Below are positions 1 to 26,197 of a stretch of DNA of 26,455 bases, one piece after another (position 1 is the stretch's first letter; every line of letters begins with the position of its first letter). The stretch is from Pseudovirgaria hyperparasitica. Lineage: Eukaryota > Ascomycota > Dothideomycetes > Acrospermales > Acrospermaceae. Position numbers and translations under genes: made by a program. The notes under the pieces were generated by a model. The model saw nothing but the letters and a program-made list of their open reading frames with translations. It searched no databases and was not told the DNA's origin. The DNA lies in the NCBI RefSeq assembly GCF_010093815.1, contig NW_022985595.1, positions 1 through 26,455 on the forward strand, in the 5' to 3' direction.

Positions 1-390
1 TGGAGCTGCACTGTTATCAGTTCCATAGCGTTCTTCACAATCTTTAGCTTACCATGTCTGTCACCTCTGATGCTGGCAGCATGGTTTGTAGAGCTACTGG
101 TAGACAGTCCCGCCTAGATAAGTCTAGATATTAGAAAGAGCTTGGTATCGTGATTCTCATCATGTGTTCTTTGTGCTTCATTTATATACGTCCTCGACTC
201 ATCCGCCTCTTCCAGCGGTTCTATCGTCTGACTCTACGTCGCAGTGTGCCAGGTAATCGTACTCACCTCCTCCTTGCTTGAAAAGTCTACAGGATTATGC
301 GTGGTGCCAAAAATCATTTTTGCATAAACTCCCTGCGCCCTCCTAAGGGCGTTGACTTTCAGCTAGTCTCCGACAATCCAATACTAGCTA
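1..390. other. Outer flank of copy A, shared with the right arm
   Basis: This stretch lies outside the unit but is repeated, inverted, at 25769-26158 with three mismatches. On the minus strand it reads like a promoter/5' leader, with TATATAAA at 188-181. The right-hand equivalent leads into an open frame at 26198. A related gene may therefore start just left of this window, running leftward. No ORF of its own is convincing. Confidence 0.5.
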
Positions 391-932
391 ACGTCCCTCC
401 CTACGTCGCGAGAAACCCTGTGGGCCGAGATGCCTTCAATACTTTCAATCATAACAAATTGTCCTGTGGTATGGGACCTTGCAAGCTCTCGGGATAGAGG
501 CTTCACACCCTATACTACATTTCTACTTAATCTTGAGCGTTGTGATTATCTACGTGGCTTGATATCTAAAAATACAGCAAACCGCTTGATTAAAGTCTTG
601 CACCCGTCGACCGATTTATCATGCTTCAAGCTTTGCACTTCGTTGGAAAATCTACCATGTCGTAGCCAAATAGATAAAGGCCATATCCCGAGCTTTTTAA
701 GCAGACAACAGCGTCTTGTGTCGTGATACAGCAGCTTTTAGACTTAGCATCGAGCAGCGCCAAGAAATCGTCAGCACTGGTCATGTACTAAAAGCCGAAA
801 GAGTGCTAGATGTGGCTGAAGTCTTGCTTGCCCAAAACGTCTGTACCTTCAGTAGCCCGTAAAACCCGAGCGCCTGATGAGGCCTGACTTTACTCTAGCG
901 AGCCCTGCCCCATAAATTTGCACCGTCCTTCC
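391..932 (+). repeat. Outer terminal inverted repeat of copy A
   Basis: This segment matches the reverse complement of 4623-5167 along its length with many substitutions, roughly a fifth of bases by eye. Shared landmarks include GTCGCGAGAAACCCTG near the tip, CTCAAGATT/AATCTTGAGCGTT, AAACCGCTTGATT, CCATGTCGTAGC, AAGCAGACAA.AGCGTCTTGTGTCG and AAAACCCGAGCGCCT. Short ORFs inside are conserved between the arms only because the whole arm is duplicated. I do not regard them as genes. Confidence 0.85.
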
Positions 933-1267
933 TTGTCTACTAGCTTGGCTAAAGGGTGACTCGCTTGCGACACCTCGAAGGCCCGCATAGCCCTGTCATC
1001 TAGGCCAATGGGCTACGCTGTCCCTGCGCGTCGACAAACGACAGCAAAGCCGTCATGTAAATCCACGTGATCGACGCAACTGCAGCCTTGTGCACTTGAT
1101 GCAGCGGACGCTACTTCATCGAAACATAATCCCAGCATTCGTTTCACTCTGCTTGTAATACACGATGGTTACATCCATGCAAGAACACTAATTTACCCCG
1201 AGACTACAAGACCCAGCGAACGTGCGCCTAGTCCAACGAACCCGCCGAACTTAGTGTGCCCCTTACA
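933..1267 (+). promoter_or_regulatory. Upstream region of the HNWD gene inside the unit
   Basis: This is the stretch between the outer TIR and the HET-NACHT ATG, with an identical mirror at 24892-25226. It should contain the promoter. I see no convincing TATA box. Near 1020-1043, GTCCCTGCGCGTCGACAAAC weakly resembles the TIR tip and could be a relic of an older unit end, but the match is too poor to rely on. Confidence 0.35.
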
Positions 1268-4236
1268 ATGCACCTGCTAACGCACAATCCACACGGCAAC
1301 CTCATCGTCCAGACCTTTACGAACGAACCCTTGCCTCCATACGCGATACTTTCACATACATGGCATGAAGATAATAGTCAAGAGGTCAGCTTTGACGATC
1401 TACAGACGGGCCGGGTGCAGCAAAAGCATGGCTATGGCAAGATACGATTTTGCGAGCGGCAGGCTGTTGCGGATGGATTGCGGCACTTCTGGATCGACAC
1501 CTGCTGCATCAACAAGTCGGACAAAGCGGAAGAGTCTCAGGCCATCCAGTCTATGTTCCGCTGGTATCGCAATGCAGCTCGATGCTACGTCCACTTGTCA
1601 GACGTATCGGTGAAGCCAAAGAGAGATCAAGATGTGATCTCATGGGAGACAGCCTTCCGTAAAAGCCGGTGGTTCACCCGTGGCTGGACACTGCAAGAAC
1701 TTCTTGCGCCCAGCAAAGTAGAGTTCTTCTCAGAAGAAGAACACAAGCTAGGCGACAAGGAGACGCTCAAGGAACAGATTCGCAGAGCTACAGGCATCCC
1801 AAGTGCGGCGCTCGAAGGTGTTCCTCTTTCTGAGTTTACCGTCGAGGATCGGTTCCGCTGGAAAGGAGATCGCGAGACGACACGAGAAGAAGACGGGGCA
1901 TACTCGCTGCAAGGAATTTTTGATGTTAACCTAGCGCCTCTTTACGGCGAAGGCGCTGTGGGAGCATTTGAGCGTCTCAAGCGTGCAATCAGTCAGCTAG
2001 CACAGTGTATTTCAGACCTCCGTGGCACGAATCCGCGCGACGACAAGAAACGCATTCAGGATACAAAGGGCGGACTACTCGAAGATGCTTATCGCTGGAT
2101 CCTCTCCAACGAGACTTTCCGGCGCTGGCATAGCGATCTGCAGAGTCCACTACTATGGATAAAGGGTGACCCTGGCAAGGGAAAGACAATGCTACTATGT
2201 GGCATTATCAACGAGCTTGAAAAACCCGCAGCTTACACCGTCAACATAAGCTACTTCTTCTTCCAAGCAACCGACTCGCGCATCAACAACGCCGTAGCCG
2301 CACTCCGAGGGCTTCTATACTTACTTGTGATACAGCAGCCGTCGCTTATCTCTCACGTACGCAAGCATCATGATCAAGGTGGAAAGACCGTGTTCGAGGA
2401 TGCAAATGCTTGGATTGCCCTGACAGAGATCTTCACAGACATCCTACAGAGTCCCGATCTGGAGCCGACATTTCTAGTTGTTGATGCACTGGATGAGTGC
2501 GCGACCAATCTCCCAAAACTCTTGGATTTTCTTGTGAAAAGTTCATCTGCGCATTCCAAAGCCAAGTGGATTATATCTAGCCGCAACCGGTTTCTTATAG
2601 AGGAGCGACTGGAGCAGGCAGGGCGTAAAGCTCGGCTTAGTCTTGAGCTCAACGCTGATTCAGTGTCAACGGCCGTGCGGGCGTTCATTGGGTACAAAGT
2701 AGATCAGCTCACCGGGCAGAAACGATATGACGATCGAACTCGGCAGGCTGTGCTAGCACACCTGGAGTTAAATGCAAACGACACCTTCCTCTGGGTAGCG
2801 CTAGTGTGCCTAGACCTCGCAGGAACATCGAAACGACATGTGCGGAGGAAGCTTGAATCTATTCCGGCCGGACTTGATTCTCTATACGAGCGAATGATGC
2901 GGCAGGTCAGTGAATCCGACGACGCTGAAGTTTGCAAGCAGATTCTAGGAGTGTCTTCACTGGCGTATCGTCCGCTTAAACTAGCCGAGCTCGGGGCTCT
3001 TAGGGAGCCGCTGGATGGCCTCGTCGAAGATGCAGAGTCGTTAAGCGAGCTTGTCAGCCTCTGTGGCTCGTTTCTCACGCTACGAGACCGTACCATCTAC
3101 TTTGTGCATCAGTCCGCCAAGGATTTTCTCCTCGCCAAGGCCGCTAATAAGGTATTCCCTTCTGGCACAGGAGTCGCTCACCACGGCGTCTTTACAAGGT
3201 CACTTGAGATCCTGTCTAGGACTCTTCGTCGCGATATATATAAACTGAAAGCGTTCGGGTGTCTAGTTGGGGAGGCTCAACAACCAGATCCTGATCCACT
3301 AGCAGCTGCACGCTACTCCTGCGTTTACTGGATTGACCATCTGCGTGACTCGAACCTGCTTTCTTCTATGAGTCATGAGGCTCTTCAACATGGTGGCATT
3401 GTTGATATCTTCTTCCGAAGCAAGTTCTTATACTGGCTGGAGGCTCTGAGCTTGTGTGCAAGCATACCAAAAGGTGTGGTCTCGATGACTAATTTGCATC
3501 TTCTAATACAGGTACCGAATTTGGAAACAATCATTAAGACATATCACGCTAACAGAACCAGAACAAGCATGAGCCAACATCATTTACCGAGTTCCTATAT
3601 GATGCACACCGATTCTTTCTGTATCACAAAAGTGCAATTGAAACCAGCCCACTCCAGGCTTATGTTTCTGCATTACTGTTCAGTCCATTAAATAGCAAAG
3701 TCCGGAGGCAGTTCCAGCATGAAGAGCCCGACTGGATCACCGTTAAGCCAGTAATAAGCAGTAGCTGGAGCGCGTGTATGCAGACGCTCGAGGGCCATAG
3801 CGGTTATGTCAAGTCCGTGGTGTTCTCGCACGACTCGACGCGGCTGGCATCAGCGTCATTCGACAACACGGTCAAGATCTGGGATGCGAGCAGCGGAGCG
3901 TGTGTGCAGACGCTCACCGTCGGAACATGCATTCAGAACCTCTCATTCGACTCTACCGGCTCGCATCTGTATACTGATATTGGCAAGATTGCTATCATCT
4001 CTCCACCAAATTCCCAACCAATTACTATTACAGATCCCCAACACCCTGATTTCTGCGATATAGGTGTTGAACCAGGAGGAATATGGATCACTTGCAGTGG
4101 GAAAAATGTTCTTTGGGTCCCATCAGAGTATCGAAGATGGTGTTCATTAGTGCATGGAAACAGGGTTGGCATTGGTACTGGATCCGGAAAGGTGTGGTTC
4201 TGCAATCTGACCGCTAAGGCTGACAAGTCCATATAG
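1268..4236 (+). CDS. HET-NACHT-WD40 (HNWD-type) NLR protein, copy A
   Basis: Predicted 974-residue STAND/NLR protein of the family that includes Podospora HET-D/HET-E, which trigger cell death on non-self fusion. Exons are 1268-3511 and 3556-4236 around a 44-nt GT-AG intron. Splicing restores the frame and the family-typical linker ending in EEPDWITVKP. HET domain: AILSHTW at 26-32, WIDTCC at 75-80, RGWTLQELLAP at 138-148. NACHT: Walker A GDPGKGKT at 300-307, Walker B-like VVDALDEC with D406 and D409-E410. One canonical WD40 repeat lies at about 823-868 (LEGHSGYVKSVVFSHDS, TVKIWDASSGAC), followed by the degenerate C-terminal tail typical of this family. I chose ATG 1268 (MHLLTHNP) because HET domains usually begin MRLL-like and the frame upstream has only GTG. 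A WD array cut to one repeat is unusual. No stop or frameshift is present. Confidence 0.93.
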
Positions 4237-4622: not shown

Positions 4623-5167
4623 GTGGGGCGGTACAGATCTTTGGGGTAGGGGCCGCTAGGGTCAAGTCAGGCCTTGTGAGGCGCTCGGGTTTTAAAAGAT
4701 GCTTAAGCTATAGCTAGCACGTCTTGGTCAACCAGACTTCAGCCACATCTAGCACTCTTCTGGCTTTTGATACATGGCCATTGTCGACGAGTTCTTGGCG
4801 CTGCTGGACACTGAGTCCAAAAGCTGCTGTATCTCGACACAAGACGCTATTGTCTGCTTAAAAACCTCGGGATACGGCCTCCATCTATTCAGCTACGACA
4901 TGGTATATTTTTAAACGGAGTGCAGAGCTTAAAGCGTGATAAATCGATCGAATGGTGCAGCACTTGAATCAAGCGGTTTATTGTATTTTTATATATCAAG
5001 CCACACAGACAATCGGAACGCTCAAGATTGAGTGGAAGTGCAGTACAAGATATGGAGTCCATATCCCGAGAGATTGAAAGTTCTCAGACCCCAGAACAAT
5101 TTGTTGTGATTGAAAGTGTTGAAGGCATCTCGGCACGCAGGGTTTCTCGCGACATAGGGAGGGACGT
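4623..5167 (-). repeat. Inner terminal inverted repeat of copy A
   Basis: This is the inverted, diverged partner of 391-932. It ends in GGGAGGGACGT at 5167, next to TA. The divergence between the two TIRs of one unit contrasts with the near-identity of the two arms, so the TIRs are much older than the arm duplication. Confidence 0.85.
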
Positions 5168-5308
5168 TAGTGCCCCAGAGATGGCCGTTGTGCATCAATG
5201 ATACTAGTGTACTGCCGGTGAGTCTTTCAGTCACTTTTCTGCCTCGAGTGAAGCGTAGCATATTCTACATTACGAAAAATTCAGATCAGATATGTCCGTT
5301 TGATATAG

Positions 5309-7666
5309 CTAGCGCTTCAGTCCACCCATAGCTTTTCTGAACGTTTCTAGGCCTTTCTCCAACATATTTTTCCTAGACTCCAGACGAAGGCGCTGTTGCA
5401 TGATCTCAGGAGGCTCAGCAGCGACGAACTCGATTTCTTTCTCCGTCATTTGTGTCACTACTAGAGGCGAAAGAATGTTTTCAGGGAGGGGTTCGACCAA
5501 GTGGCGCTCAATGACAGCCTTAGTGACGGCGTTGACGAAGTACTTCATCTCATCTTTGTAGAACGCACGCTCAATATCAAGAGCTTCCTGGCTTGAGAAG
5601 ACGTCCATATCCAGCTCGATCGCTTTATTCATGGCCTCTGAGAGCTTTCCAGGGTCAATATGCGTACTTATGTCGTTGTAGCGATCATACGTGCTGACTT
5701 GTGAGGCTTCTGAGGCTTTCTTCGTGATTTTCTCGTGTTTGCGTTGACGCATCTTCTGTACCGTGGTAGTGAAGTAGTGGTTATAAGTAGTTGGATGGCG
5801 AGTTTTGTCCTTTAGGACCTTGTGCAGTTCTTCTTCCGCGCCGGTAAGAGCTTTGCTTAATGCACCATCCACATACAGAGTTGTAAGCCGGCCCTTGAAC
5901 TCAGATGGAGCGGCATCCCGGAGAACCACATCGATGAACTCCTTACAAGCAGTCGCAACCGTGTTAATATGCTGAGAAGCAATCTGCTCCCATGGCTGGG
6001 ACTGCTCCCAGAAAAGCTGTGATATCAGCATTGGCTGGAATGTGCCAGGAAGCTCGTAGCCACGGGAGCGCTCCAAAGTCTTCTTGACCCAGTCGATGGC
6101 TTCTTGACGTGTAAGCTTCGTGGGCTTGGGAAGAGACATGAGCTCCCGGTGTTCATCGAGATTACCAAGCTCTTCCTGCGCTTTTATATCCTCTTTGATT
6201 TCTCCCTCTCCGTCACCAGGTCCGGCTCCGAATGCGTATTTATGACCCCTCAAGCGCATATCGTTGGCGAAGGTGATGTTGAGGTGTTGGATCACAGCTC
6301 GAAAGCGGCGGATATTCTCGGATGCATCAACAGCAGCGTCCTTGTTGATTGGTCCGAAAAACGACGACTCGTAATAGCCCTTGGTAGCAGAATTCAAGAT
6401 GTCGCTGATGCGCATGCTGATCTTCATCAGAACCATGCGCTGCTCATGAGTGGTGTTGCGCTTGTCGCCTAGCTTCACAAGCTCTGCAATTGTACCCTGA
6501 AGCTTGTGAACTATTTCGTCCTTCAAAGAAGGAAGCTCCTTGATCAAATGATTGAGTAGCACTTTACTGAGACGCTCGCGCAAGGAGTTAATGCCAACGC
6601 ACTCACGGGGTAGGTCCGCGTAGCGGCCCTTGTTAAAGAACATGTCCTCGTCTGCGTTGCGTTGCTCAAAGGAGAACTTCATCTGATTATCACCACGATT
6701 CTTAAGCATGTGCCAACCGCGCTCCAAGTAAATATCCTTGTTCTGGACCAACTCGATCCAGGTCAGTTCATTATCAGTGCCTTCACGGAGGAAGTCAGGC
6801 TTGGTGACGATGCCAAGGGTACGACGACCCTGGTCGTCGATCTTGCGGCAATGGTCCAGAATAATTTGATTAGCGTAATCGTTCTTTGCGCTCACCACTG
6901 CCAAAATGATGGTACGCGGGTTTTTCATGTACTCCTTAACCAGGTTCAGGATCAGCTCTTTATCGATCTCTGTCTGTGCTTTGTTGGTTGCATGGATGAG
7001 ACCCGGAAGGTCCACGAGAGTACTAGCCATTCATTAGTACGCCTTTAGCATATCGGATGAATGACATACAGTTGAGGCCTGGCTGGACCAGTGATCTCGA
7101 CCGACAGCACATCACGAGAGAATGCCCTTGAATTGATCCCACCTACAACCCCTAGGCCCATCGCTAGTGTCGCCTCTTCGATCACATCTGGAAGCTGACT
7201 GAAGTCGTTCATGGACTTGCTGAACGATTTGAGCTTGGCTTGCTCCGACTTTGGGCGAAGCTTGTCTGGAGTGATCGTGATTGTGCTGGTGGACGATGCA
7301 GAACGACGGAGGATGATCTAGAAGTCGTTAGCATAATACCTGGGGCATTTGAGATTTACTCACTTCAGTCGCAAATCTCGTACACAGGTTTTCCTTACGA
7401 GGAAACGGAATCTCGGTGATAGCCTCAAGTACAGAGCTTTTACCGGATGACTGGTCACCGCAGACTACAAGCTGGGGTAGTTCCACAATACCACTGAGAC
7501 CTGTACGTCGCAGCTTGTCTACGATATCCATAACTTTCCGCTGATCTGCAGACTGTAAAGCGTGCAGTGAGCTTGTAGTGACAGAGTCCGGGTCGATAGG
7601 CACTGTCGATGTGGTTGACATCTCGACGCCTTCAAAATCGGAGTCGCTAGACGTGCCACTTGCCAT
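5309..7666 (-). CDS. Dynamin-like (Mx/Vps1-type) GTPase
   Basis: Three exons (7666-7364, 7317-7070, 7022-5309) with introns of 46 nt (GTGAGT...TAG) and 47 nt (GTATGT...TAG) give a 754-residue protein. Dynamins bind GTP, oligomerise on membranes and drive fission or remodelling. Large GTPase domain: P-loop GDQSSGKSS at 70-78, switch region CTRFATE at 95-101, DLPG at 188-191 (split from its leading TLV by intron 2), TKPD at 257-260, and LKNRG near 290-294. The middle/stalk follows, then a C-terminal GTPase effector domain (about 660-754). I chose ATG 7666 (CAAATATGG) because an in-frame ATG at 7858 would add 64 residues with an odd hydrophobic stretch, more likely 5' UTR. No breaks are visible. 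It ends 140 bp from the left arm. Confidence 0.93.
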
Positions 7667-8286
7667 ATTTGTGAACAAACTCTTTTTGTAGGCGAAGCAG
7701 ATAACACTGTCGAGTTGAAGTGGTACGGAAGAGATAGTTGGACGAGCAACAGAGTGACTTAGAGATGGATCCAAAGAGGCTGCCGCAGTGAGTGCGAGGG
7801 AAATAGACAGCAAGGCGATTGCTGCGGAATTACATCTTCGCTTTTTGCGATGTACCAAGGATCTATTGACATCTTGCGTTACACTGCTTATCCCACGAGT
7901 TGTCTTAAAAAAACAAAGGAAAACAGTCAGCAGCCCTGTCCCAACAACTGAGTAGAACTTTTTGAAAACGTGGCCATTTTAGTGGACACATCCCCCCTTC
8001 TTCCCCCTATACCTGCTTTGCAGTTCTCGCATTTCTCTGGATCTACGTATCTGCTGGCTTGCATAACATGCATGACCACAGTTCAGCGCCTCAAACGCTT
8101 TACATCCCTGTAGCGGACTGGATCATGCATTGCGGGATGAAAAAGCTGCTTTCTATCTGCGAGCGAGACCAAGCCAGCCATCGGGATAAGACAGTCATCG
8201 GTGATCTGGGCTTGGTTCTCCACATGTTGGCACACCGTAGTAGACTTTCTCGCTTCTGGTGCTTCCGTGGCTGCTAGATACTACTG
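7667..8286. other. Upstream region of the dynamin-like gene
   Basis: This holds the 5' leader and presumed promoter of the minus-strand dynamin-like gene. Runs such as CCCCCCTTCTTCCCCC (7990-8005) are pyrimidine-rich on the plus strand. A 72-codon plus-strand frame at 8059-8277 has no recognisable features and starts at TTG. I do not call it a gene. Confidence 0.4.
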
Positions 8287-8640
8287 CTAGAAATCGCAAC
8301 GCGGTTCTGATTGGCAATGGCACAAAACAAACGGGGCCTCTAGACCTCCAGGAATCATCTTCGCAACGGTCTCTGAGCCTGCATGTAAAGCGCGGCGTCC
8401 AGCCTCTAGATCATACTTCGATTCGTTTAGCGATGTTATCTTTCCTGATCTAGGAAGACCACTGAGTCCGGTTACTTCGACTGCGTTCTTGTTGCCAGAC
8501 ACTAGTTCCCGGCATATAGTATCTTCTGCAGCACCGACTGTTATTGTCGCTCGTGTAGGTTGGGACATTATGTCTAAAGGCATTTCAACAGGAAGGGGGG
8601 CGAAAACGCAAAAACAAACTTTTGTGAGAAGTTCATGCAT
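8287..8640 (-). CDS. Small hypothetical ORF with a P-loop-like motif
   Basis: An ATG-initiated frame of 117 codons that I do not recognise. It contains GLPRSGKIT, which fits the G-x4-G-K spacing of a Walker A loop but has Ile in place of the Ser/Thr usually following Lys. No Walker B or other nucleotide-binding motif follows. It stands alone between the dynamin-like gene's promoter and a stretch without genes. It may be a chance frame, or a remnant of a larger ATPase or GTPase. Confidence 0.22.
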   Translation of the reverse strand: MHELLTKVCFCVFAPLPVEMPLDIMSQPTRATITVGAAEDTICRELVSGNKNAVEVTGLSGLPRSGKITSLNESKYDLEAGRRALHAGSETVAKMIPGGLEAPFVLCHCQSEPRCDF

Positions 8641-9256
8641 TCAGTATCATTAGCCCATAGGTTTGGCTTACACGCCACTCCGACAGTTGTTCACCGGAAT
8701 CGAGGAATTCAAACACCTGTATATGCGCGGAATGCGAAGAGAAGCACTGCACTGCAAATCATGCTGCAGCTCCCTCTGTTCCTTTCTACAGAAGAAGTGG
8801 CTAGACGCTTCGTTACTTGCGACAGTTTCTCTCGACTGCCGCTGAGGTTGGAATGGTGCCGCATAGCAGCGTTCTCGACGCTCCTCCGGATGCTGATCAC
8901 GATACCAAGATGGAGGTGATTGTCTAGGAAGACCCGACATCTTATACCATTAACGCAGAAGCATGGTGGTGGCATGCCAACAGGAAGAGACGTGGAACGT
9001 TCACTTGGTCTAGACCGTTGCAATCGGAAAGTGCGACCACTGGCTCCCTCACGACGTTCTGCAAGACTTTGCCATGATATACGCAGCTTTGACGCTAGTC
9101 TACTCCAGCGGACTTACAACTTTCAGAGTCTGCAAGTCTCCGCGTTAGGTTGCCGAGACTCACCGCCTACCGTGTTGTAAAACTACACACACACAGGTAC
9201 CGATCACAGAGCAATTTAGTAGAGTACCCTAAAGACCCATGCGACAGAGCCTCTCA
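8641..9256. other. Stretch without a supported gene
   Basis: Short frames occur on both strands (8635-8919 plus, 8668-9023 minus). They overlap each other and show no motif. I see no repeat or RNA gene here. Confidence 0.4.
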
Positions 9257-9517
9257 CTAATGCTCTCTTGATCGGAGGATTATCCGGCTGTGAGTGTTGA
9301 TTTGGCGTGGCGGTGTTGGGGTACGCTTCATGCGCGACGCACTACCCGTATCTCTCGTACTACGTTTCTGCTTCTTCCTTGGTACTGCTTTTTGTAAAGC
9401 CTCACGCTTGCCTGTAGAGGACTTTTGTATAGCTGTCTCATGATCGCGAGTTTGCCTTTGGCCCTCTCCCTCAGTCATGTAGCGGCGAAACAGGGATGAT
9501 TCATGCCATGCTGCCAT
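9257..9517 (-). CDS. Small basic hypothetical ORF
   Basis: From ATG 9517 (MAAWHESSLFRRYM) there are 86 codons to the stop at 9257. The second half is strongly basic and Ser/Thr/Pro-rich (RKKQKRSTRD, KRTPTPPRQ), like a nuclear or nucleic-acid-binding tail. I recognise no family. The frame stays open for 25 codons upstream to a TTG, so it may be the last exon or remnant of a longer gene. Confidence 0.25.
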   Translation of the reverse strand: MAAWHESSLFRRYMTEGEGQRQTRDHETAIQKSSTGKREALQKAVPRKKQKRSTRDTGSASRMKRTPTPPRQINTHSRIILRSREH

Positions 9518-10343
9518 CTCGGTTGGTATTCTCCAAAGCGATCTGAGTGGGATCAGTTGTAAACGCCGTTTATACGTCTGCCTTGAGCACAATGGTTACA
9601 ACATACACAATACAGCCACTGATAGGCTTCCTGGCCAGCCCATCGTACTCGGAGAAAGTCTGCAACCTCATGTATCAGCGTGACAAGGGCTGCACAAAGG
9701 GATTGGTGGATTCGAGGAGTCTGGTAGTCAACACTGATGCAAAGGAGAAGATGAATCCATGTCACGGCTTGCAGCTGGGCGGATACACCAGCCAATGCGT
9801 TGCGAGGCGAGCGGCTGTACTGTACCACCATCGCCATCCGCTGTGATGCGCGGTAAGACCCTGGGCCAGCTCCACCGTCCTCTCTGATCGAGCACTGCCG
9901 CACTATGCCGCACTAAGGGCGCTGTTGCTTCGATACGCAGTCTGCACGGTCCAGTGCCTATCAATTGTCGCCATCGCCGCAGAAAAGTCCTAACAGCCAC
10001 GCGGAGGTTGGACTAAGCCTGTTGGTAGGTAAGCGGTTTTTGGCGAAAGACTCGTATGACTCTTGAGGCTGCAGCAATGATCGGTGAGAGAAGCCTAGGC
10101 GGTCTCCACTTCAATCAGGAGACCAGTCGGTGCACCATTATTGCAGACATGTGGCTGATTATCGGTGTACAAGAAGGGACCGTCTGCTGATACAGCATGG
10201 GCAACAACAGTTTGGAGATCATTAGAGCTTGTTGAAGCAAACTAACCGTAGTCAATTGCCTAGTTGACAGTGGTCCCTCGCTCATACAAATGCAAATGCA
10301 TACGGTCATTTTTTTGTCTACTAGTGGTAAGGCTGAGGCCCTG
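9518..10343. other. Stretch without a supported gene
   Basis: Overlapping short frames on both strands. The only one of slight interest is a plus-strand frame from ATG 9592 to 9846 with four cysteines and no clear signal peptide. It lies over an equally long minus-strand frame and is not called. Confidence 0.35.
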
Positions 10344-10640
10344 TTAAAAGCTCTGTTCATTCTGGTGGAGGCTTGCATTCCAGTTACTATTGCAATTTCT
10401 GATCGGGTTGTAATTGTGCCGGTATTTTCGCATGAAAATCTGCATGATGAAATCAAATTGACCATCCACTTTCTTCATGGCAGCTTCCGCATCTGCAACG
10501 GCGGCTTCGTGTATTACATCTCCTAAAGCACATGTCCTTTCCATAATGCGCTCGAGGAAGTCGCCGCAGTCAACAAAGTCCGGGTCGCGCGAGAAAGGGA
10601 CTGTGGAGAAGGGCGCGGGGCGGGTCGGACGCTTTCGTAT
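10344..10640 (-). pseudogene. Relic resembling the start of a STAND/NB-ARC domain
   Basis: A continuous minus-strand frame of about 97 codons encodes, near its start, FSTVPFSRDPDFVDCGDFLERI followed by MERTC only 22 codons on. This resembles the conserved segment just ahead of the P-loop in fungal NB-ARC/TPR-type STAND proteins (V-P-F-x-R-D-P-D-F-V-x-R-G). No P-loop follows, and the rest (HEAAVADAEAAMKK) is not recognisable. I infer a truncated 5' piece of another NLR-type gene. The match rests on memory of the motif, so confidence is moderate at best. Confidence 0.38.
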
Positions 10641-10772
10641 CTAGTCGCGGGTGCGAGTCGGGTCTAGCGTACGTGGGGCAGGGTAATGATAGACATCGTG
10701 CTACTTCTGCCTCAGACCGCAGTCCCCACCCACCTGTCGTCTTACAGAAGGCCACAGCCAGACGAGGCTGAG

Positions 10773-10793
10773 CAGCAGCAGCAGCAGCAGCAG
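10773..10793 (+). repeat. (CAG)7 microsatellite
   Basis: Seven perfect CAG units in the presumed 5' leader of the gene stub that starts at 10874. Confidence 0.95.
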
Positions 10794-10873
10794 TCCACCA
10801 CCAATGTTGCGCAGACTACCTCAGCGGCACTGCTTTACTTCCATCTCTTGACATCAATACTCACCACCTCAAT

Positions 10874-16758: not shown

Positions 16759-17105
16759 ATGTACCCTCCAGAAGAGCACACCTGATCATCATAGCTAGTA
16801 CATTGTTTAAGACTCATATCATGTGGCGTGAAATAGCATCAAAATGGCAGTTTTAAATCTTGTCACTCTCACCGACACGCCTGGAAGTCCGTGACCCGGT
16901 GTGGTACCATGATGATCCCATGATCCGCTATGTTTTGCAAGGATATGTAAGCAAGTACCAGGATACTACAACTTAACCACTTTCCGTTAATCCAAGCGTG
17001 TTTGTAGCCTCATTTGGCTGAACATTGTGGATGTTGAGGTGCTGTGAGTGCTTGAGCTTTTCAGGCTCTATCATATGTTAGGCTTCTAATCCGCCTTATA
17101 GATCT
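16759..17105. other. Stretch without a supported gene
   Basis: I see no ORF, repeat or element end here. It should include the 3' flank of the transcription-factor remnant. Confidence 0.4.
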
Positions 17106-17391
17106 TCAGGCGGGGCGGTGGTGCATAAGTTTCAGGGTTGCTGCACCTTCTGTTAGGTGAACTCGACGCCCTGTCTTGACAATTTTATGTTTTGAGATCG
17201 GGATGCAGAGACCATCTGCGGTGTAGAACCTCGCTGTAGTGTGCAACGCTAGACTAGGCGGAATGTACAAGGGTGTCATCTTTTGCGATTGTGCGGTGGG
17301 CGAAAAGAGCGTAGGGGAGAAAGAGTTACCGCGAGTATCAGCAATAGAGTATTCATCCCAGTACAAAATATATAGTATTATCACTGGAAGT

Positions 17392-17754
17392 TTATGGTTC
17401 GGCGATATGCTCCAACAGGATATTGAAGCTGAGCAAAAGTGCCCACCTCGCGAGCTCGAAGTCTTGCAGGGATACATCAAATCCAGAAATCTCCGTAGAA
17501 ATGCTCGAACTGCGATCCTTTGTCTCGACATATATCTGATCAGGAGCGCTTCCATAACGTAAAATCCATCTTGCTGGAAAAGCCCCGGTTGTGGGAAAAT
17601 CACTACAAGCATTCATCGTATCTGTCTCCTCAGCCAGACCATTGAGCACTTTGTTTGAGCGCGTGAAGGCACGGATTCGAGGGCATCCTGGTAAAGCGTT
17701 TCGATGGACTTCAAGAAGGACTTCGGATCCAAGCTCTCCCGCTACGCCGCACAC
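17392..17754 (-). pseudogene. Unrecognised, possibly decayed minus-strand ORF
   Basis: 120 codons of ordinary-looking protein (for example PARWILRYGSAPDQIYVETKD and GFDVSLQDFELARWALLL). The frame continues upstream through one stop to about 17810. Downstream, after a one-base shift, another frame runs on to 17106 (ILYILYWDEYSIADTRG). That pattern fits a decaying gene read toward lower coordinates, starting close to the broken end of the carrier gene. I cannot assign a family. Overlapping plus-strand frames look like shadows. Confidence 0.25.
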
Positions 17755-17821
17755 AGACGACGCTTGGATGATAGGCCTCCATGCCTTTCCAGATTACCGG
17801 TATACGTTCTCAGTCACTTCT

Positions 17822-18416
17822 TTACGTCAGTGTTTCAACTGTTGAGGCATCAAGCTGCAGTCTTGTTTTAACAAGCCAGATTGGATTTGTAGCAGTCGCT
17901 GTTGCTATCCCAGCGGCAACGGCAGCGTAGGCGTGAACTATGGCCGCGTCTTCTCCGCACCCTAGCATCTGCGCTCTAAGATATTTACAGTTGCCGTATA
18001 CGTAGAATTTAATTGCAGTTGCAGGGACTACGCCTGCAAGGCTTGGCCCGAGACCTCGATAGAAGCCGCGCCAGCCTTCGGTATGGGAGATGGAGCCAAT
18101 GATCTGGAAGGTGCCGCGAATGTGGTCCTTCGATGGACCAAGAAAAGTAAGCCTGGACTGGACGGGAGACGCAGGAACGAGAGAAGGGCGGTGGTAATCT
18201 GATTGGAGTCGAGTTCGCAGACCATCAAGCGGGGATGTAACAAGCGCTGTGGCTAATCCTCCATTGCTTTAAGCAATCAAGGCTGTTCGTGACTTACGCG
18301 CCAGCAAGCAGATGTACCCAAGATCGTACCGGTCTCTGCTCTATCGAGCTACTATTTTTTGTCTTTGGAAGTATTGCTGAAGACTGAGAGCTGTGACGCA
18401 TCGATTCCTGTGCCAT
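17822..18416 (-). pseudogene. Truncated RIM2-like mitochondrial carrier (SLC25 family)
   Basis: Reading ATG 18416 to 18298, skipping 18297-18267, then 18266 to the stop at 17822 gives 187 residues. SLC25 carriers exchange metabolites across the inner mitochondrial membrane. Evidence: RSWVHLLAGA at the end of exon 1, signature TSPLDGLRTRLQ at 50-61, EGWRGFYRGLGPSLAGVVPATAIKF at 103-127 in two adjoining motifs, then NPIWLVKTRLQLD at 167-179. NPIWLVKTRLQLD is typical of the pyrimidine-nucleotide (RIM2) carriers. Only one carrier repeat and the start of the second remain of three, so the product cannot be a working transporter. The skipped 31 nt has GTAAGT and AG ends and keeps the frame, but is very short for an intron. 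Downstream of the stop no carrier homology continues, so the gene was cut here. Confidence 0.8.
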
Positions 18417-18798
18417 TCTCGTGGTTCATCGACGGCTATGTGCGTGCAATGGAGTGCGAGCTACGACGAAACAAGTCGCGTTGAAACGGATGTACACGCA
18501 TGCGACAAAGAAGAATGCATTGGAAGACCAATCAAACGAGCAGTGAGAGAAAAATTGAGAGCGTGTTGATGAATATGGAGCTTCTGTAATATCGCAGTGA
18601 AAATCTCGAGGAAACACGAATCTAAGCTGCGAGAAAGTCTTGGAGTTTCGGCAGAGCCGAGGAGTCCCCGGGGGCTGAGTCAAACAACCCGAGTCTTGCA
18701 ACGTCTCCAAAGACTTTCAATTCGGACTGAGTGTAGTCTACAACAAGATAGTTCTTCCACTTCGAAATCAATTCGCGAAATCTGTAGGTTTTGGTCCT
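18417..18798. other. Upstream of the carrier remnant; no gene seen
   Basis: It should contain the old promoter of the minus-strand carrier. Short frames on both strands lack features. Confidence 0.4.
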
Positions 18799-18887
18799 TT
18801 GGACATCTATGCTTGGACATCTAATGCTTGGACATCTAATGCTTGGACATCTAATGCTTGGACATCTAATGCTTGGACATCTAATGC
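18799..18887 (+). repeat. 15-bp tandem repeat, six units
   Basis: The unit TTGGACATCTAATGC is repeated head to tail. The first unit (18799-18812) lacks one A and is 14 bp. The next five are perfect. As 15 is a multiple of three, frames stay open on both strands through the array (MLGHL on plus, LDVQA on minus), but nothing else supports a gene. Confidence 0.97.
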
Positions 18888-19076
18888 TCGGCAGTATCTC
18901 GACGAAACGGTTCCCTGTCGCGTTGCGGAATTATGCGTCACTTCAGCCAGTGACTTCGGTCGAACTTGCTCGTGAACGCGTTGCTCAGTATTGAGGACAG
19001 CCGTTAGCCACACAGTGCGCGACATGCTTGAACATTTCAAGTAATAGATAGTAGAGAGTATAGAAAATCTTCTCTA

Positions 19077-19152
19077 CCCGTCCCATGCACTTCGGAGTTG
19101 TAACCTCCGAAGTGCTCCCGACTTGAACTGTACATATGCACTTCAACGGTAC
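19077..19152 (+). repeat. Left TIR of the pogo/Fot element
   Basis: It begins CCCGTCCCATGCACTTCGG. An internal hairpin (11-bp arms GCACTTCGGAG/CTCCGAAGTGC at 19087-19097 and 19105-19115, 7-nt loop) is preserved in the partner TIR. The few differences from the right TIR are mostly C/T or G/A. Confidence 0.95.
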
Positions 19153-19153
19153 T

Positions 19154-20760
19154 ATGCCTAAAGTCCCTTATACGTACTAAAATGAGGAGGAGAAGGTCTA
19201 ATCTGCCATTCGTGACTTTCAGAACGCGAAATTTGGATCATTAGCGGCCTCGGCGCGTCATCATCGCGCCATATACCGTCGTATCTTACATCGCAATCGC
19301 GGTATACCACCGAAAACCGCGCAAACCAAGACTTCTAATGGGCTCAATCCACAGCAGGAGCTTACCCTTAAGGAGTATATACACCGCTGCGACGAGATTG
19401 GTGTATCTGCCTTAATTAGGCAGATTCGGAGTGCTGCAGAGAGCATTCTTATACGTGATGCCAAGCCTGGTTCTGACTATATACCACGGCCAATTGGACG
19501 TGACTGGGTTACGCGCTGGCTAGCACGTAATCCTAAGTGTAAAATGGTAAAGCAGAAGGCACGAGAGTCTATACGTATTACAGCAGAGGACGTGGTAGAG
19601 ATGAAGGGCTTCTTTATGAAGTTCAAGCAGTTCTATACGTCCTATGGTATACAGGACCATGACGTATATAATATGGATGAGACTGGCTTCCGAATCGGTG
19701 TTAGAGGTTCACAGAAGGTGATTACTATGAAGAAGTACCCAGTCGCCCTCGGTACTGAAACAAATCGCGACTATATGACGTCTATCGAATGCATTTCAGC
19801 AGATGGATATGTGCTGCCCCCTTTACTTATTATGAAGGGGGTTGTAGTACAGGAGAAATGGATAAGCAGAGAGATAGGCCTACCAGGTGACTATGAAGTA
19901 TCCTGCTCGGAATCTAGCTATATGAACGACCAGCTAGCCCTATCGTGGATTTAACACTTCGATAAACACACAAAGTCTCGTACACTTGTCACCTATCGAC
20001 TCATCATATTAGATGGAGCAGTATCCGATTTAACCATCGAACTCATAGAGTATTGCGACAAGAATCAAATACTCCTCTTTGGACTACCTCTTAATAGTAG
20101 TCACGCGCTACAGCCACTTGATGTCAACTGTGTTCAGACGTATAAACAACATCATATAATGGGTGTTGAGATGGCTGTACGCGAAGGCCGCTTAGACTTT
20201 AATAAGGTTGAATTTCTCCATGGAATCCACTCATGGAGAGTCGCCACATTCAAGCCAGGTACGATTAGGAACGCCTTCAAGAAGACTAGGTTGATTCCTT
20301 TCAATCCTAATGTTGTATTAGATCAGATACGTGCTAAAATAGACGTCAAGGCACCTATATCTCATCGCCAGTTACTCCAGAAAATGGATGAACTACAGCA
20401 GGAGGGCAAGTTTACTGAAGCCAATCATAAACTATGGAGTAAACTATACAAATCAACACACGCACTCTCTATTAAGTATGAACTCTGTCGCAATGAACTA
20501 CGCGATAATCAACAAGCAGCCGTCAATCGTGCTAGACGTAACCCTCCTACAAAAGGGTGGGTATTGGCAAATATGGTCCCTTTAACGTGAGAGACTCTAG
20601 GGTTACTATTACAAAGAAGCGTGCGAGTACTATTAAGAGAGATGCACAGAGGGCGGCTAGGGAGGCTCAAAAACAGGCCACAGAAGTGCCTACTGCTGAG
20701 GAATGTGACTAGAACACGAGTACTCAATTCCCAGATGACTGCGAAGAAGTTGACGAGTAA
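19154..20760 (+). pseudogene. pogo/Fot DDE_1 transposase, inactivated
   Basis: From ATG 19154 a single frame encodes, in order, an N-terminal helix-turn-helix part, a CENP-B/Tc5-like DNA-binding segment (GRDWVTRWLARNPK) and the DDE catalytic core. The catalytic Asp codons are at 19676 (NMDETGF), 20012 (LILDGAVSD, where DGHGSH is usual) and 20120 (ALQPLDV), with 36 residues between the last two. Stops break it at 19178, 19199, 19952 and, after a shift near 20545 into the frame ending at 20760, at 20710. All four are TAA or TAG that one C-to-T change from CAA/CAG would create, as RIP does. The C-terminus is basic then acidic. It cannot make active transposase. Confidence 0.9.
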
Positions 20761-20815
20761 TAAATATATGGTATTAGCTATATAGACGTCGCTATCTTCA
20801 TTTTACAGATACATG

Positions 20816-20891
20816 GTACCGTTGAAGTGTATACGTACAGTTCAAGTCGGGAGCACTTCGGAGGTTACAACTCCGAAGTGCGTGGGACGGG
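20816..20891 (-). repeat. Right TIR of the pogo/Fot element
   Basis: Inverted partner of 19077-19152, with the same hairpin at 20853-20881. Confidence 0.95.
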
Positions 20892-20893
20892 TA

Positions 20894-20989
20894 CGGCCTT
20901 AGTAGCTAGAACCTACTTCTTAGAATAGGTAGCCTAGATACTAGGAGCCTCTTATTACCTAAGAACTATTAGTAGCTAACATAAGTAGT
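20894..20989. other. AT-rich linker between pogo element and right arm
   Basis: About 96 bp rich in TAG/CTA motifs (TTAGTAGCTA occurs twice, near 20899 and 20968). It has no ORF and nothing similar at the left arm's inner edge. It is probably a remnant of another repeat. Confidence 0.4.
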
Positions 20990-20991
20990 TA

Positions 20992-21536
20992 ACGTCTCTC
21001 CCTATGTCGCGAGAAACCCTGCGTGCCGAGATGCCTTCAACACTTTCAATCACAACAAATTGTTCTGGGGTCTGAGAACTTTCAATCTCTCGGGATATGG
21101 ACTCCATATCTTGTACTGCACTTCCACTCAATCTTGAGCGTTCCGATTGTCTGTGTGGCTTGATATATAAAAATACAATAAACCGCTTGATTCAAGTGCT
21201 GCACCATTCGATCGATTTATCACGCTTTAAGCTCTGCACTCCGTTTAAAAATATACCATGTCGTAGCTGAATAGATGGAGGCCGTATCCCGAGGTTTTTA
21301 AGCAGACAATAGCGTCTTGTGTCGAGATACAGCAGCTTTTGGACTCAGTGTCCAGCAGCGCCAAGAACTCGTCGACAATGGCCATGTATCAAAAGCCAGA
21401 AGAGTGCTAGATGTGGCTGAAGTCTGGTTGACCAAGACGTGCTAGCTATAGCTTAAGCATCTTTTAAAACCCGAGCGCCTCACAAGGCCTGACTTGACCC
21501 TAGCGGCCCCTACCCCAAAGATCTGTACCGCCCCAC
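20992..21536 (+). repeat. Inner terminal inverted repeat of copy B
   Basis: Mirror image of 4623-5167. It is read outward from the TA at 20990-20991 and differs from its partner at one base (20997) that I could find. Confidence 0.85.
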
Positions 21537-21922
21537 TACGGAGCACCAGCGGTCGCTTGTCCTTATCTAGGGAACACAAGAAAGCGGCCATATCGACCCC
21601 GTACAAGCTTAACCTGTCTAGGGACACTCGAAGTCAGTGGTCCACAGTACACACCACCATGTGCTATTTGCACGTGAGGGGATATTTGCAGCTTTATGCG
21701 ATACACAGCTCGCAATCTATGGCCTTAGCCCATCGCCTGTCTGCCAGGAGTCCTTCCCTGCGTGGCGAGAAACCCAATGTGGCAAGAAGCCCTTGACGTG
21801 TTTACACATAACCAAATTGATCCACAGTAAAGCTCGAGCGAAGCTTAATTCTTAGAATCGAATGAATATTCCTTATGATTAATTTTATGTCTATTTAATT
21901 CCATGTGACTTGATTTTAGTTT

Positions 21923-24891
21923 CTATATGGACTTGTCAGCCTTAGCGGTCAGATTGCAGAACCACACCTTTCCGGATCCAGTACCAATGCCAACCCTGTT
22001 TCCATGCACTAATGAACACCATCTTCGATACTCTGATGGGACCCAAAGAACATTTTTCCCACTGCAAGTGATCCATATTCCTCCTGGTTCAACACCTATA
22101 TCGCAGAAATCAGGGTGTTGGGGATCTGTAATAGTAATTGGTTGGGAATTTGGTGGAGAGATGATAGCAATCTTGCCAATATCAGTATACAGATGCGAGC
22201 CGGTAGAGTCGAATGAGAGGTTCTGAATGCATGTTCCGACGGTGAGCGTCTGCACACACGCTCCGCTGCTCGCATCCCAGATCTTGACCGTGTTGTCGAA
22301 TGACGCTGATGCCAGCCGCGTCGAGTCGTGCGAGAACACCACGGACTTGACATAACCGCTATGGCCCTCGAGCGTCTGCATACACGCGCTCCAGCTACTG
22401 CTTATTACTGGCTTAACGGTGATCCAGTCGGGCTCTTCATGCTGGAACTGCCTCCGGACTTTGCTATTTAATGGACTGAACAGTAATGCAGAAACATAAG
22501 CCTGGAGTGGGCTGGTTTCAATTGCACTTTTGTGATACAGAAAGAATCGGTGTGCATCATATAGGAACTCGGTAAATGATGTTGGCTCATGCTTGTTCTG
22601 GTTCTGTTAGCGTGATATGTCTTAATGATTGTTTCCAAATTCGGTACCTGTATTAGAAGATGCAAATTAGTCATCGAGACCACACCTTTTGGTATGCTTG
22701 CACACAAGCTCAGAGCCTCCAGCCAGTATAAGAACTTGCTTCGGAAGAAGATATCAACAATGCCACCATGTTGAAGAGCCTCATGACTCATAGAAGAAAG
22801 CAGGTTCGAGTCACGCAGATGGTCAATCCAGTAAACGCAGGAGTAGCGTGCAGCTGCTAGTGGATCAGGATCTGGTTGTTGAGCCTCCCCAACTAGACAC
22901 CCGAACGCTTTCAGTTTATATATATCGCGACGAAGAGTCCTAGACAGGATCTCAAGTGACCTTGTAAAGACGCCGTGGTGAGCGACTCCTGTGCCAGAAG
23001 GGAATACCTTATTAGCGGCCTTGGCGAGGAGAAAATCCTTGGCGGACTGATGCACAAAGTAGATGGTACGGTCTCGTAGCGTGAGAAACGAGCCACAGAG
23101 GCTGACAAGCTCGCTTAACGACTCTGCATCTTCGACGAGGCCATCCAGCGGCTCCCTAAGAGCCCCGAGCTCGGCTAGTTTAAGCGGACGATACGCCAGT
23201 GAAGACACTCCTAGAATCTGCTTGCAAACTTCAGCGTCGTCGGATTCACTGACCTGCCGCATCATTCGCTCGTATAGAGAATCAAGTCCGGCCGGAATAG
23301 ATTCAAGCTTCCTCCGCACATGTCGTTTCGATGTTCCTGCGAGGTCTAGGCACACTAGCGCTACCCAGAGGAAGGTGTCGTTTGCATTTAACTCCAGGTG
23401 TGCTAGCACAGCCTGCCGAGTTCGATCGTCATATCGTTTCTGCCCGGTGAGCTGATCTACTTTGTACCCAATGAACGCCCGCACGGCCGTTGACACTGAA
23501 TCAGCGTTGAGCTCAAGACTAAGCCGAGCTTTACGCCCTGCCTGCTCCAGTCGCTCCTCTATAAGAAACCGGTTGCGGCTAGATATAATCCACTTGGCTT
23601 TGGAATGCGCAGATGAACTTTTCACAAGAAAATCCAAGAGTTTTGGGAGATTGGTCGCGCACTCATCCAGTGCATCAACAACTAGAAATGTCGGCTCCAG
23701 ATCGGGACTCTGTAGGATGTCTGTGAAGATCTCTGTCAGGGCAATCCAAGCATTTGCATCCTCGAACACGGTCTTTCCACCTTGATCATGATGCTTGCGT
23801 ACGTGAGAGATAAGCGACGGCTGCTGTATCACAAGTAAGTATAGAAGCCCTCGGAGTGCGGCTACGGCGTTGTTGATGCGCGAGTCGGTTGCTTGGAAGA
23901 AGAAGTAGCTTATGTTGACGGTGTAAGCTGCGGGTTTTTCAAGCTCGTTGATAATGCCACATAGTAGCATTGTCTTTCCCTTGCCAGGGTCACCCTTTAT
24001 CCATAGTAGTGGACTCTGCAGATCGCTATGCCAGCGCCGGAAAGTCTCGTTGGAGAGGATCCAGCGATAAGCATCTTCGAGTAGTCCGCCCTTTGTATCC
24101 TGAATGCGTTTCTTGTCGTCGCGCGGATTCGTGCCACGGAGGTCTGAAATACACTGTGCTAGCTGACTGATTGCACGCTTGAGACGCTCAAATGCTCCCA
24201 CAGCGCCTTCGCCGTAAAGAGGCGCTAGGTTAACATCAAAAATTCCTTGCAGCGAGTATGCCCCGTCTTCTTCTCGTGTCGTCTCGCGATCTCCTTTCCA
24301 GCGGAACCGATCCTCGACGGTAAACTCAGAAAGAGGAACACCTTCGAGCGCCGCACTTGGGATGCCTGTAGCTCTGCGAATCTGTTCCTTGAGCGTCTCC
24401 TTGTCGCCTAGCTTGTGTTCTTCTTCTGAGAAGAACTCTACTTTGCTGGGCGCAAGAAGTTCTTGCAGTGTCCAGCCACGGGTGAACCACCGGCTTTTAC
24501 GGAAGGCTGTCTCCCATGAGATCACATCTTGATCTCTCTTTGGCTTCACCGATACGTCTGACAAGTGGACGTAGCATCGAGCTGCATTGCGATACCAGCG
24601 GAACATAGACTGGATGGCCTGAGACTCTTCCGCTTTGTCCGACTTGTTGATGCAGCAGGTGTCGATCCAGAAGTGCCGCAATCCATCCGCAACAGCCTGC
24701 CGCTCGCAAAATCGTATCTTGCCATAGCCATGCTTTTGCTGCACCCGGCCCGTCTGTAGATCGTCAAAGCTGACCTCTTGACTATTATCTTCATGCCATG
24801 TATGTGAAAGTATCGCGTATGGAGGCAAGGGTTCGTTCGTAAAGGTCTGGACGATGAGGTTGCCGTGTGGATTGTGCGTTAGCAGGTGCAT
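21923..24891 (-). CDS. HET-NACHT-WD40 (HNWD-type) NLR protein, copy B
   Basis: Inverted duplicate of the gene at 1268-4236. Exons are 24891-22648 and 22603-21923 with the same 44-nt intron. Both ORF translations are identical to copy A, so HET motifs, Walker A/B, the single WD repeat and the tail are all conserved. The two copies point toward each other across the spacer. Identical upstream sequence (about 1.2 kb, including the outer TIR) suggests both would be expressed alike. Because the copies match, one of them could be silent without consequence. The sequence does not tell. Confidence 0.93.
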
Positions 24892-25226
24892 TGTAAGGGG
24901 CACACTAAGTTCGGCGGGTTCGTTGGACTAGGCGCACGTTCGCTGGGTCTTGTAGTCTCGGGGTAAATTAGTGTTCTTGCATGGATGTAACCATCGTGTA
25001 TTACAAGCAGAGTGAAACGAATGCTGGGATTATGTTTCGATGAAGTAGCGTCCGCTGCATCAAGTGCACAAGGCTGCAGTTGCGTCGATCACGTGGATTT
25101 ACATGACGGCTTTGCTGTCGTTTGTCGACGCGCAGGGACAGCGTAGCCCATTGGCCTAGATGACAGGGCTATGCGGGCCTTCGAGGTGTCGCAAGCGAGT
25201 CACCCTTTAGCCAAGCTAGTAGACAA

Positions 25227-25768
25227 GGAAGGACGGTGCAAATTTATGGGGCAGGGCTCGCTAGAGTAAAGTCAGGCCTCATCAGGCGCTCGGGTTTTAC
25301 GGGCTACTGAAGGTACAGACGTTTTGGGCAAGCAAGACTTCAGCCACATCTAGCACTCTTTCGGCTTTTAGTACATGACCAGTGCTGACGATTTCTTGGC
25401 GCTGCTCGATGCTAAGTCTAAAAGCTGCTGTATCACGACACAAGACGCTGTTGTCTGCTTAAAAAGCTCGGGATATGGCCTTTATCTATTTGGCTACGAC
25501 ATGGTAGATTTTCCAACGAAGTGCAAAGCTTGAAGCATGATAAATCGGTCGACGGGTGCAAGACTTTAATCAAGCGGTTTGCTGTATTTTTAGATATCAA
25601 GCCACGTAGATAATCACAACGCTCAAGATTAAGTAGAAATGTAGTATAGGGTGTGAAGCCTCTATCCCGAGAGCTTGCAAGGTCCCATACCACAGGACAA
25701 TTTGTTATGATTGAAAGTATTGAAGGCATCTCGGCCCACAGGGTTTCTCGCGACGTAGGGAGGGACGT
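25227..25768 (-). repeat. Outer terminal inverted repeat of copy B
   Basis: Mirror image of 391-932. It ends next to the TA at 25769-25770. I saw no difference from the left copy. Confidence 0.85.
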
Positions 25769-25970
25769 TAGCTAGTATTGGATTGTCGGAGACTAGCTGA
25801 AAGTCAACGCCCTTAGGAGGGCGCAGGGAGTTTATGCAAAAATGATTTTTGGCACCACGCATAATCCTGTAGACTTTTCAAGCAAGGAGGAGGTGAGTAC
25901 GATTACTTGGCACACTGCGACGTAGAGTCAGACGATAGAACCGCTGGAAAAGGCGGATGAGTCGAGGACG

Positions 25971-25978
25971 TATATAAA
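25971..25978 (+). promoter_or_regulatory. TATA-like box in the outer flank
   Basis: TATATAAA lies 220 bp before ATG 26198 and is also present, inverted, at 181-188 in the left flank. The distance is long for a direct TATA-to-ATG spacing but allows a 5' UTR, perhaps with an intron (GTAAGC at 26109). Confidence 0.35.
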
Positions 25979-26197
25979 TGAAGCACAAAGAACACATGAT
26001 GAGAATCACGATACCAAGCTCTTTCTAATATCTAGACTTATCTAGGCGGGACTGTCTACCAGTAGCTCTACAAACCATGCTGCCAGAATCAGAGGTGACA
26101 GACATGGTAAGCTAAAGATTGTGAAGAACGCTATGGAACTGATAACAGTGCAGCTCCACAATGCATTCATTCGTATCAATCGCGATATTCAAGAGAG

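What the first reader, a model, noticed from the sequence alone, without database searches (positions are those of the whole stretch)
1..26158. Giant hairpin: 5.17-kb inverted arms, nearly identical, around a 15.8-kb spacer
Two arms pair base for base (x with 26159-x), and only four mismatches were found by eye. Three of these lie in the outer 260 bp and one at the extreme inner end, so the 4.77-kb unit between looks essentially identical. Inverted copies this long and alike could drive inversion of the spacer, hairpin formation and gene conversion. The spacer orientation may differ between strains.
Basis: seen in the sequence. Interest (0 to 1): 0.75.

Follow-up and report, generated by a model that had tools for sequence, protein, structure and literature searches.

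The report
Twin inverted fungal self-recognition genes
A fungal contig carries two virtually identical mirror-image copies of a 4.8-kb transposon-like unit holding a self/non-self recognition (NLR) gene, apparently a recent duplication that repeat-directed mutation has not touched and that could let the DNA between the copies flip.

Summary
In detail: 1-5169 and 20990-26158 pair with 4 mismatches and no gap. The window is one whole 26,455-base contig (C47) of a 35.0-Mb, 59-contig assembly of fungal character. It starts inside the left arm, so 5.17 kb is a minimum.
Each arm's inner end is a TA at the edge of a nested 4,777-bp unit with ~540-bp imperfect terminal inverted repeats (TIRs). The unit carries a HET-NACHT-WD40 gene of the fungal HNWD type. 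Three junctions of this TIR family have an uninterrupted counterpart elsewhere in the genome, each breaking at TA.
The copies share outer flanks but not inner ones, so they are not two simple insertions. I read them as a recent inverted segmental duplication with breakpoints set by transposon ends.
Six gypsy-type copies elsewhere show repeat-induced point mutation (RIP); the arms do not, though they should be good RIP targets. The duplication is therefore probably younger than the last RIP-active sexual cycle, or RIP has been lost. Spacer inversion is plausible, as in the Saccharomyces flip/flop region, but untested. Without reads, an artefact in the outer left arm cannot be excluded.

The parts
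1..388 (+). outer flank of left arm: part of a repeat family with a coiled-coil-like ORF, cut by the contig start
   Evidence: 91-98% copies or part copies on C35, C36, C39, C45, C50; protein of the C35 copy matches only C35, C36, C39, C45, C47, C50
391..5167 (+). unit copy 1: 4,777-bp TIR-bounded unit with a HET-NACHT-WD40 gene, TA at 389-390 and 5168-5169
   Evidence: nested inverted repeats I3 and I5, alignment, TIR ends, junctions
391..928 (+). outer TIR of copy 1 (82-83% identical to the inner TIR)
4626..5167 (-). inner TIR of copy 1
1268..4236 (+). HET-NACHT-WD40 (HNWD-type NLR) gene, copy 1; one probable intron, best guess 3512 to 3561, 3567 or 3573; 968-972 aa; one Pfam WD40 stretch
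   Evidence: PF06985, PF05729, PF24883, PF00400; splice scan, which also allows other donors and acceptors
5170..20989 (.). spacer, 15,820 bp
5309..7858 (-). dynamin-family GTPase gene, two ORFs
   Evidence: PF00350, PF01031
11034..13361 (-). retrotransposon fragment (reverse transcriptase; gypsy-type by recall), not RIP-mutated
   Evidence: PF00078; 36 relatives at 76-84% among the 39 of 335 candidates scored; direction of changes tested against 6 of them
13431..14693 (+). ankyrin-repeat ORF
   Evidence: Pfam
14912..18793 (.). segment duplicated at 98-99% on C26 (17609-18796 also on C28 at 96%): regulator ORF whose Zn2Cys6 part lies only in the C26 copy, and a mitochondrial-carrier ORF
19077..20891 (+). 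decayed pogo/Fot1-like DNA transposon (name by recall), 82-bp TIRs, TA target with an uninterrupted counterpart on C35
   Evidence: no Pfam match for its ORFs
20992..25768 (-). unit copy 2, inverted, TA at 20990-20991 and 25769-25770
21923..24891 (-). HET-NACHT-WD40 gene, copy 2, identical
25771..26158 (-). outer flank of right arm
26159..26455 (+). right continuation of the same outer repeat family to the contig end

Best explanation
A recent inverted segmental duplication in a repeat-mosaic (perhaps subtelomeric or accessory) part of a filamentous fungal genome. The duplicated block is an outer repeat flank plus a 4.78-kb non-autonomous, TA-targeting, TIR-bounded unit that carries an HNWD-type NLR gene. 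SHOWN in the assembly: two copies with shared outer and different inner flanks; every unit edge at TA; uninterrupted counterparts for the outer junction, for the copy-2 inner junction and for one relative of the TIR end. INFERRED: the unit once moved as a DNA transposon; then ectopic recombination between unit copies, or an aberrant transposition using ends from two copies, put the same outer flank on both. The copies stayed identical because the event is young and has not passed through RIP, and possibly through gene conversion. Consequences (inferred): two inward-facing identical NLR genes, and arms able to flip the 15.8-kb spacer by homologous recombination.
For: Arms: 4 mismatches in 5,169, one of them (5162) in the 4,777 unit columns. 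The arm's inner end is the unit's TA edge, with nested TIRs. TA at all four unit edges. Uninterrupted counterparts: outer junction on C35 and C50; copy-2 inner junction on C35, 92% over 97 bases; TIR relative on C26 with its counterpart on C36. The 25-base TIR end occurs, at up to 3 mismatches, at six places, four on C47 and one each on C26 and C36; the control found 0. HET, NACHT and WD40 domains. Composite RIP index of 388-5170 is -0.43, against 0.73 to 1.11 in six loci holding gypsy-type copies. From the window's gypsy-type fragment to those six copies, C>T plus G>A number 155-202 and the reverse 36-43.
Against: No reads, so the outer extent and exact identity of the left arm rest on the assembly. 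Only two full unit copies were found, no transposase was found in the unit, and nothing shows movement today. The uninterrupted counterparts do not pair into one empty site for either copy: the C35 counterpart of copy 2's inner flank goes on with sequence unlike the outer flank, and the C35/C50 counterpart of the outer flank goes on with sequence unlike either inner flank. Copy 1's inner flank has no counterpart elsewhere. No telomere repeats were found on C47 or the other small contigs (some contig ends are withheld), so 'subtelomeric' is inference. Absence of RIP would also fit loss of RIP.
Confidence: 0.6

Rival explanations
1. Assembly artefact: only one full unit exists; the assembler ran from spacer end 5170 through a collapsed repeat into copy 2's sequence and flank, or polishing made two diverged copies look identical.
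For: C47 is a small contig whose two ends both stop inside the same repeat family. At all three outer mismatches the left copy, at the contig edge, is the odd one. No reads are available.
Against: The 5170 side joins the unit exactly at its TIR end and a TA, so a real TIR end of this family, or an error landing exactly there, is needed. The spacer is not palindromic, so a fold-back read does not explain it. No gaps or Ns.
Confidence: 0.25
2. Old inverted repeat kept identical by continual gene conversion, with recurrent spacer inversion, like the Saccharomyces flip/flop region.
For: Size and layout are alike (4.2-kb arms, 24-kb spacer; PMC9731477, abstract and passages). The mismatches cluster at the outer edge (P = 0.0016).
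Against: In a genome with RIP scars, an old linked 5-kb repeat should carry RIP; this one has no RIP-like composition. The outer mismatches may be edge errors. No related genome was available for a test of age.
Confidence: 0.12
3. Two independent insertions of the unit, one in each of two pre-existing inverted copies of the outer repeat at the same site.
For: The outer repeat is multicopy.
Against: Both insertions would have to share the exact base and orientation. The two outer flanks are 99.2% alike while the other near-full-length family copies are 92-95%. The inner flanks should then also be alike, and are not.
Confidence: 0.03

Closest known systems
Saccharomyces chromosome XIV flip/flop region (PMC9731477; abstract and search passages read)
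   Same: Two almost identical kb-scale inverted repeats that carry genes and flank a multi-gene spacer.
   Different: There both orientations are shown and the arms are conserved across a genus; here one contig, arms with transposon-like edges, an NLR gene, a genome with RIP scars, no orientation data.
HNWD genes of Podospora anserina, het-d, het-e, HNWD1-3 (PMC1805685; abstract, section 8 and passages read)
   Same: HET, NACHT and WD40 in that order; a duplicated family in a RIP-capable fungus, where two family pseudogenes were inactivated by RIP.
   Different: Here two identical copies without RIP composition in an inverted TIR-bounded block; one Pfam WD40 stretch, where Table 2 of the paper lists 2 to 15 repeats.
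Starship-type giant transposons with HET and NACHT cargo in Pyrenophora (PMC9594970; passages read)
   Same: Mobile DNA carrying heterokaryon-incompatibility and NACHT genes; one such element has terminal inverted repeats.
   Different: Those elements are far larger (the one with TIRs is 294 kb) and are typed by a DUF3435 captain and its cargo; here the unit is 4.8 kb, without a captain.
Segmental duplications of Colletotrichum higginsianum (PMC5576322; passages read, abstract in part)
   Same: Duplications probably driven by recombination between repeat elements.
   Different: Five of six there join different chromosomes; this is a short-range inverted pair.
Sclerotinia sclerotiorum MAT inversion (PMC3574095; passages read)
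   Same: Ascomycete region between inverted repeats.
   Different: 250-bp repeats, 3.6-kb region, inverted in every meiotic generation.

Membership tests
HNWD (HET-NACHT-WD40) NLR gene | N-terminal HET domain | tested here: met
   PF06985 E 1.3e-12, residues 29-117
HNWD (HET-NACHT-WD40) NLR gene | central NACHT with P-loop | tested here: met
   PF05729 E 6.2e-14, PF24883 E 5.4e-35; GDPGKGKT read in the ORF
HNWD (HET-NACHT-WD40) NLR gene | C-terminal array of several WD40 repeats | tested here: inconclusive
   one PF00400 stretch in a second ORF, in frame only if a predicted intron is removed
TIR DNA transposon with TA target (Tc1/mariner-like; name by recall) | terminal inverted repeats | tested here: met
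   391-928 with 4626-5167, 82-83%
TIR DNA transposon with TA target (Tc1/mariner-like; name by recall) | TA on both sides of a copy, with an empty site that joins both flanks | tested here: inconclusive
   TA at all edges; uninterrupted counterparts for single junctions, but none joins both flanks of one copy
TIR DNA transposon with TA target (Tc1/mariner-like; name by recall) | transposase, its own or from a partner with the same TIRs | tested here: inconclusive
   no transposase among the three unit ORFs scanned; the two other places with this TIR end, on C26 and C36, were listed for ORFs but not scanned with Pfam
Flip/flop inverted-repeat inversion region | both spacer orientations exist | not testable with these tools
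   one assembly only; no confirmed relative of the NLR protein in genome contigs or viral contigs
Starship giant transposon | DUF3435 captain at one end | tested here: not met
   the one DUF3435 place found is on C28:181920-183279, none on C47
Fold-back (missed-adapter) read artefact | palindrome without a unique spacer | tested here: not met
   the spacer pairs at chance level

The most novel reading that the evidence does not exclude
A fungal NLR self-recognition gene has been captured in a small TIR unit that spreads by TA-targeted transposition and by aberrant transposition with ends from two copies, making mirror-image gene pairs free of RIP; the inverted pair then keeps the gene identical by gene conversion and lets the block between flip: a built-in way to duplicate and preserve an allorecognition gene in a genome that mutates repeats.
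Probability: 0.15. Interest if true: 0.65.

Novelty: new variant of a known kind. Interest (0 to 1): 0.42.

Why it matters
If real, it is a snapshot of an NLR gene just after duplication: a linked, 5-kb, >99.9% identical repeat in a genome that carries RIP scars must be young or shielded, or RIP has been lost. Isolates could then show directly how such genes duplicate, whether RIP later hits them, and whether the arms flip the spacer. It also suggests that transposon ends can set the breakpoints of segmental duplications around allorecognition genes. If it is an assembly effect, it is a caution for small contigs that end in repeats.

Tried and rejected
Starship: three DUF3435 pieces at one place, on C28, none on C47. 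Telomere-bounded minichromosome: exact four-fold TTAGGG matches only on C9, C12, C16, C17, C20 (the backward control gave 1); of 18 contig ends fetched as 250-base pieces, five begin and end in N, so this is incomplete. RNA genes and tRNAs in the window: none found. Relatives of the NLR protein in genome contigs (14 pattern matches) and viral contigs (2): none confirmed; neither collection is fungal. Solved structures by sequence: none at E 0.01. A paired empty site for either unit copy: not found. RIP in the unit's own TIRs: 27 of 61 transitions lie in CpA/TpG context, above a naive quarter (binomial P 0.001), only a weak hint. Nine further ORFs of the window gave no Pfam match at E 0.01.

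In print: the listings of seven paper searches (open-licence library only) show no title about an NLR gene in a short inverted TIR pair; most of the listed papers were not opened. PMC9594970 (passages) does describe large transposons with HET and NACHT cargo. PMC5913888 was searched for 'inverted duplication' and 'inverted repeat': no occurrence in its main text. For alternative transposition making rearrangements in maize and rice I saw only the listing and start of abstracts of PMC3470690, PMC8225341 and PMC3744419. The taxon was not determined; 'filamentous fungus' rests on the HNWD gene, the intron and RIP, partly by recall.

Full report
OBSERVATION. Positions 1-5169 and the reverse complement of 20990-26158 differ at 4 of 5,169 columns (72, 209, 252, 5162), with no gap, and pairing drops to 19-30% per 250 bases inside. 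The repeat finder reports the same pair. The window is the whole contig C47 of a 35,028,730-base, 59-contig genome. The contig starts inside the left arm, so the true arm may be longer.

ANATOMY. Each arm has two parts. The outer 388 bases belong to a repeat family with copies or part copies at 91-98% on C35, C36, C39, C45 and C50. The right continuation 26159-26455 belongs to the same family, so both contig ends stop in it. A protein taken from the C35 copy matched only C35, C36, C39, C45, C47 and C50. The inner part is a 4,777-bp unit (391-5167; copy 2 20992-25768) with its own inverted ends, 82-83% identical over about 540 bases. TA lies at both edges of both copies, and the arm's inner end is the outer base of the inner TA.

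GENE. The unit encodes HET, then NACHT, then in another frame a WD40 stretch. Removing a GT-AG intron from 3512 to 3561, 3567 or 3573 joins these into one frame of 972, 970 or 968 aa; other donor sites also give open frames. The two copies are identical in the 811-aa ORF. The best-scoring other place in the genome is 38% identical over residues 248-753; the highest identity elsewhere is 63% over residues 4-118, on C36. The architecture is that of the Podospora HNWD genes (PMC1805685).

JUNCTIONS. The outer edge has an uninterrupted counterpart on C35 and C50, breaking after GCTA; the match runs three bases further (ACG), which I take as chance. The inner edge of copy 2 has one on C35, breaking after AGTTA, 92% over 97 bases. 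A relative of the TIR end on C26, of which only one end was recognised, has a counterpart on C36 that breaks at a TA. The 25-base TIR end occurs at six places in the genome within 3 mismatches, four on C47 and one each on C26 and C36; the backward control found none. This makes a transposon end likely. Against it: no transposase among the unit ORFs scanned, only two full copies, and no counterpart that joins both flanks of either copy.

HOW IT AROSE. The outer flanks differ at 3 of their first 387 bases, and the inner flanks share no 9-mer in register within 130 bases. Two independent simple insertions do not give this. Either ectopic recombination between unit copies carried unit plus flank to a second place, or an aberrant transposition used ends from two copies. 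I cannot separate the two.

AGE AND RIP. Six loci holding gypsy-type copies from elsewhere in the genome have composite RIP indices of 0.73 to 1.11; the unit has -0.43. These six were the only ones fetched of 36 relatives listed, from 39 of 335 candidates scored. Against the window's fragment they show 155-202 C>T plus G>A changes and 36-43 of the reverse, the former mostly in CpA/TpG context. So RIP has acted in this genome. PMC1805685 (passage) gives linked repeats over 400 bp and over 80% identical as RIP targets. The unit holds 667 CpA/TpG sites, yet the copies differ at one base. The simplest reading is that the duplication is younger than the last RIP-active sexual cycle; loss of RIP would fit too. 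Another duplication here is also without clear RIP bias: window 14912-18793 against C26, 98-99% identical, 16 C>T plus G>A against 11 of the reverse.

ARTEFACT. At the three outer mismatches the left copy, at the contig edge, is the odd one against the right copy and C35, C45 and C50. An artefact could fake the left arm's outer reach or its identity. It cannot easily fake the join of the spacer to the unit's exact end. I give it 0.25.

INVERSION. The parallel is the yeast flip/flop region, with 4.2-kb arms and a 24-kb spacer (PMC9731477, abstract and passages). Orientation there did not change in about 53,800 mitoses and 950 meioses. Here nothing tests it.

SPACER. It holds a dynamin-family gene, a gypsy-type fragment without RIP, an ankyrin ORF, a regulator ORF that lacks the Zn2Cys6 part found in the C26 copy, a mitochondrial-carrier ORF, and a decayed pogo-like element whose TA site is uninterrupted on C35. 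The names gypsy and pogo/Fot1 rest partly on recall: Pfam supports the reverse transcriptase but gave no match for the two transposase ORFs.

Noticed in passing
window 14912-18793; C26:220656-224621; C28:184728-186011: Segment shared at 96-99% by three contigs without clear RIP bias; C28's copy begins about 1.1 kb after the only DUF3435 (Starship captain type) gene found in the genome, C28:181920-183279.
   Followed up: partly
C35, C36, C39, C45, C46, C50 (loci L050-L057): The fetched stretches of these small contigs form a mosaic of shared blocks, mostly 85-98% identical, with non-RIP composition: a repeat compartment, perhaps subtelomeric or accessory.
   Followed up: partly
window 11034-13361: A gypsy-type fragment that looks like an unRIPed relative of six RIP-mutated copies compared.
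   Followed up: yes
window 18799-18888: 15-bp minisatellite, 6.1 copies at 98% matches.
   Followed up: no
C36:16776-17120: HET-domain fragment 63% identical to the unit's HET domain, the highest identity among the other matches in the genome, on another small contig.
   Followed up: no
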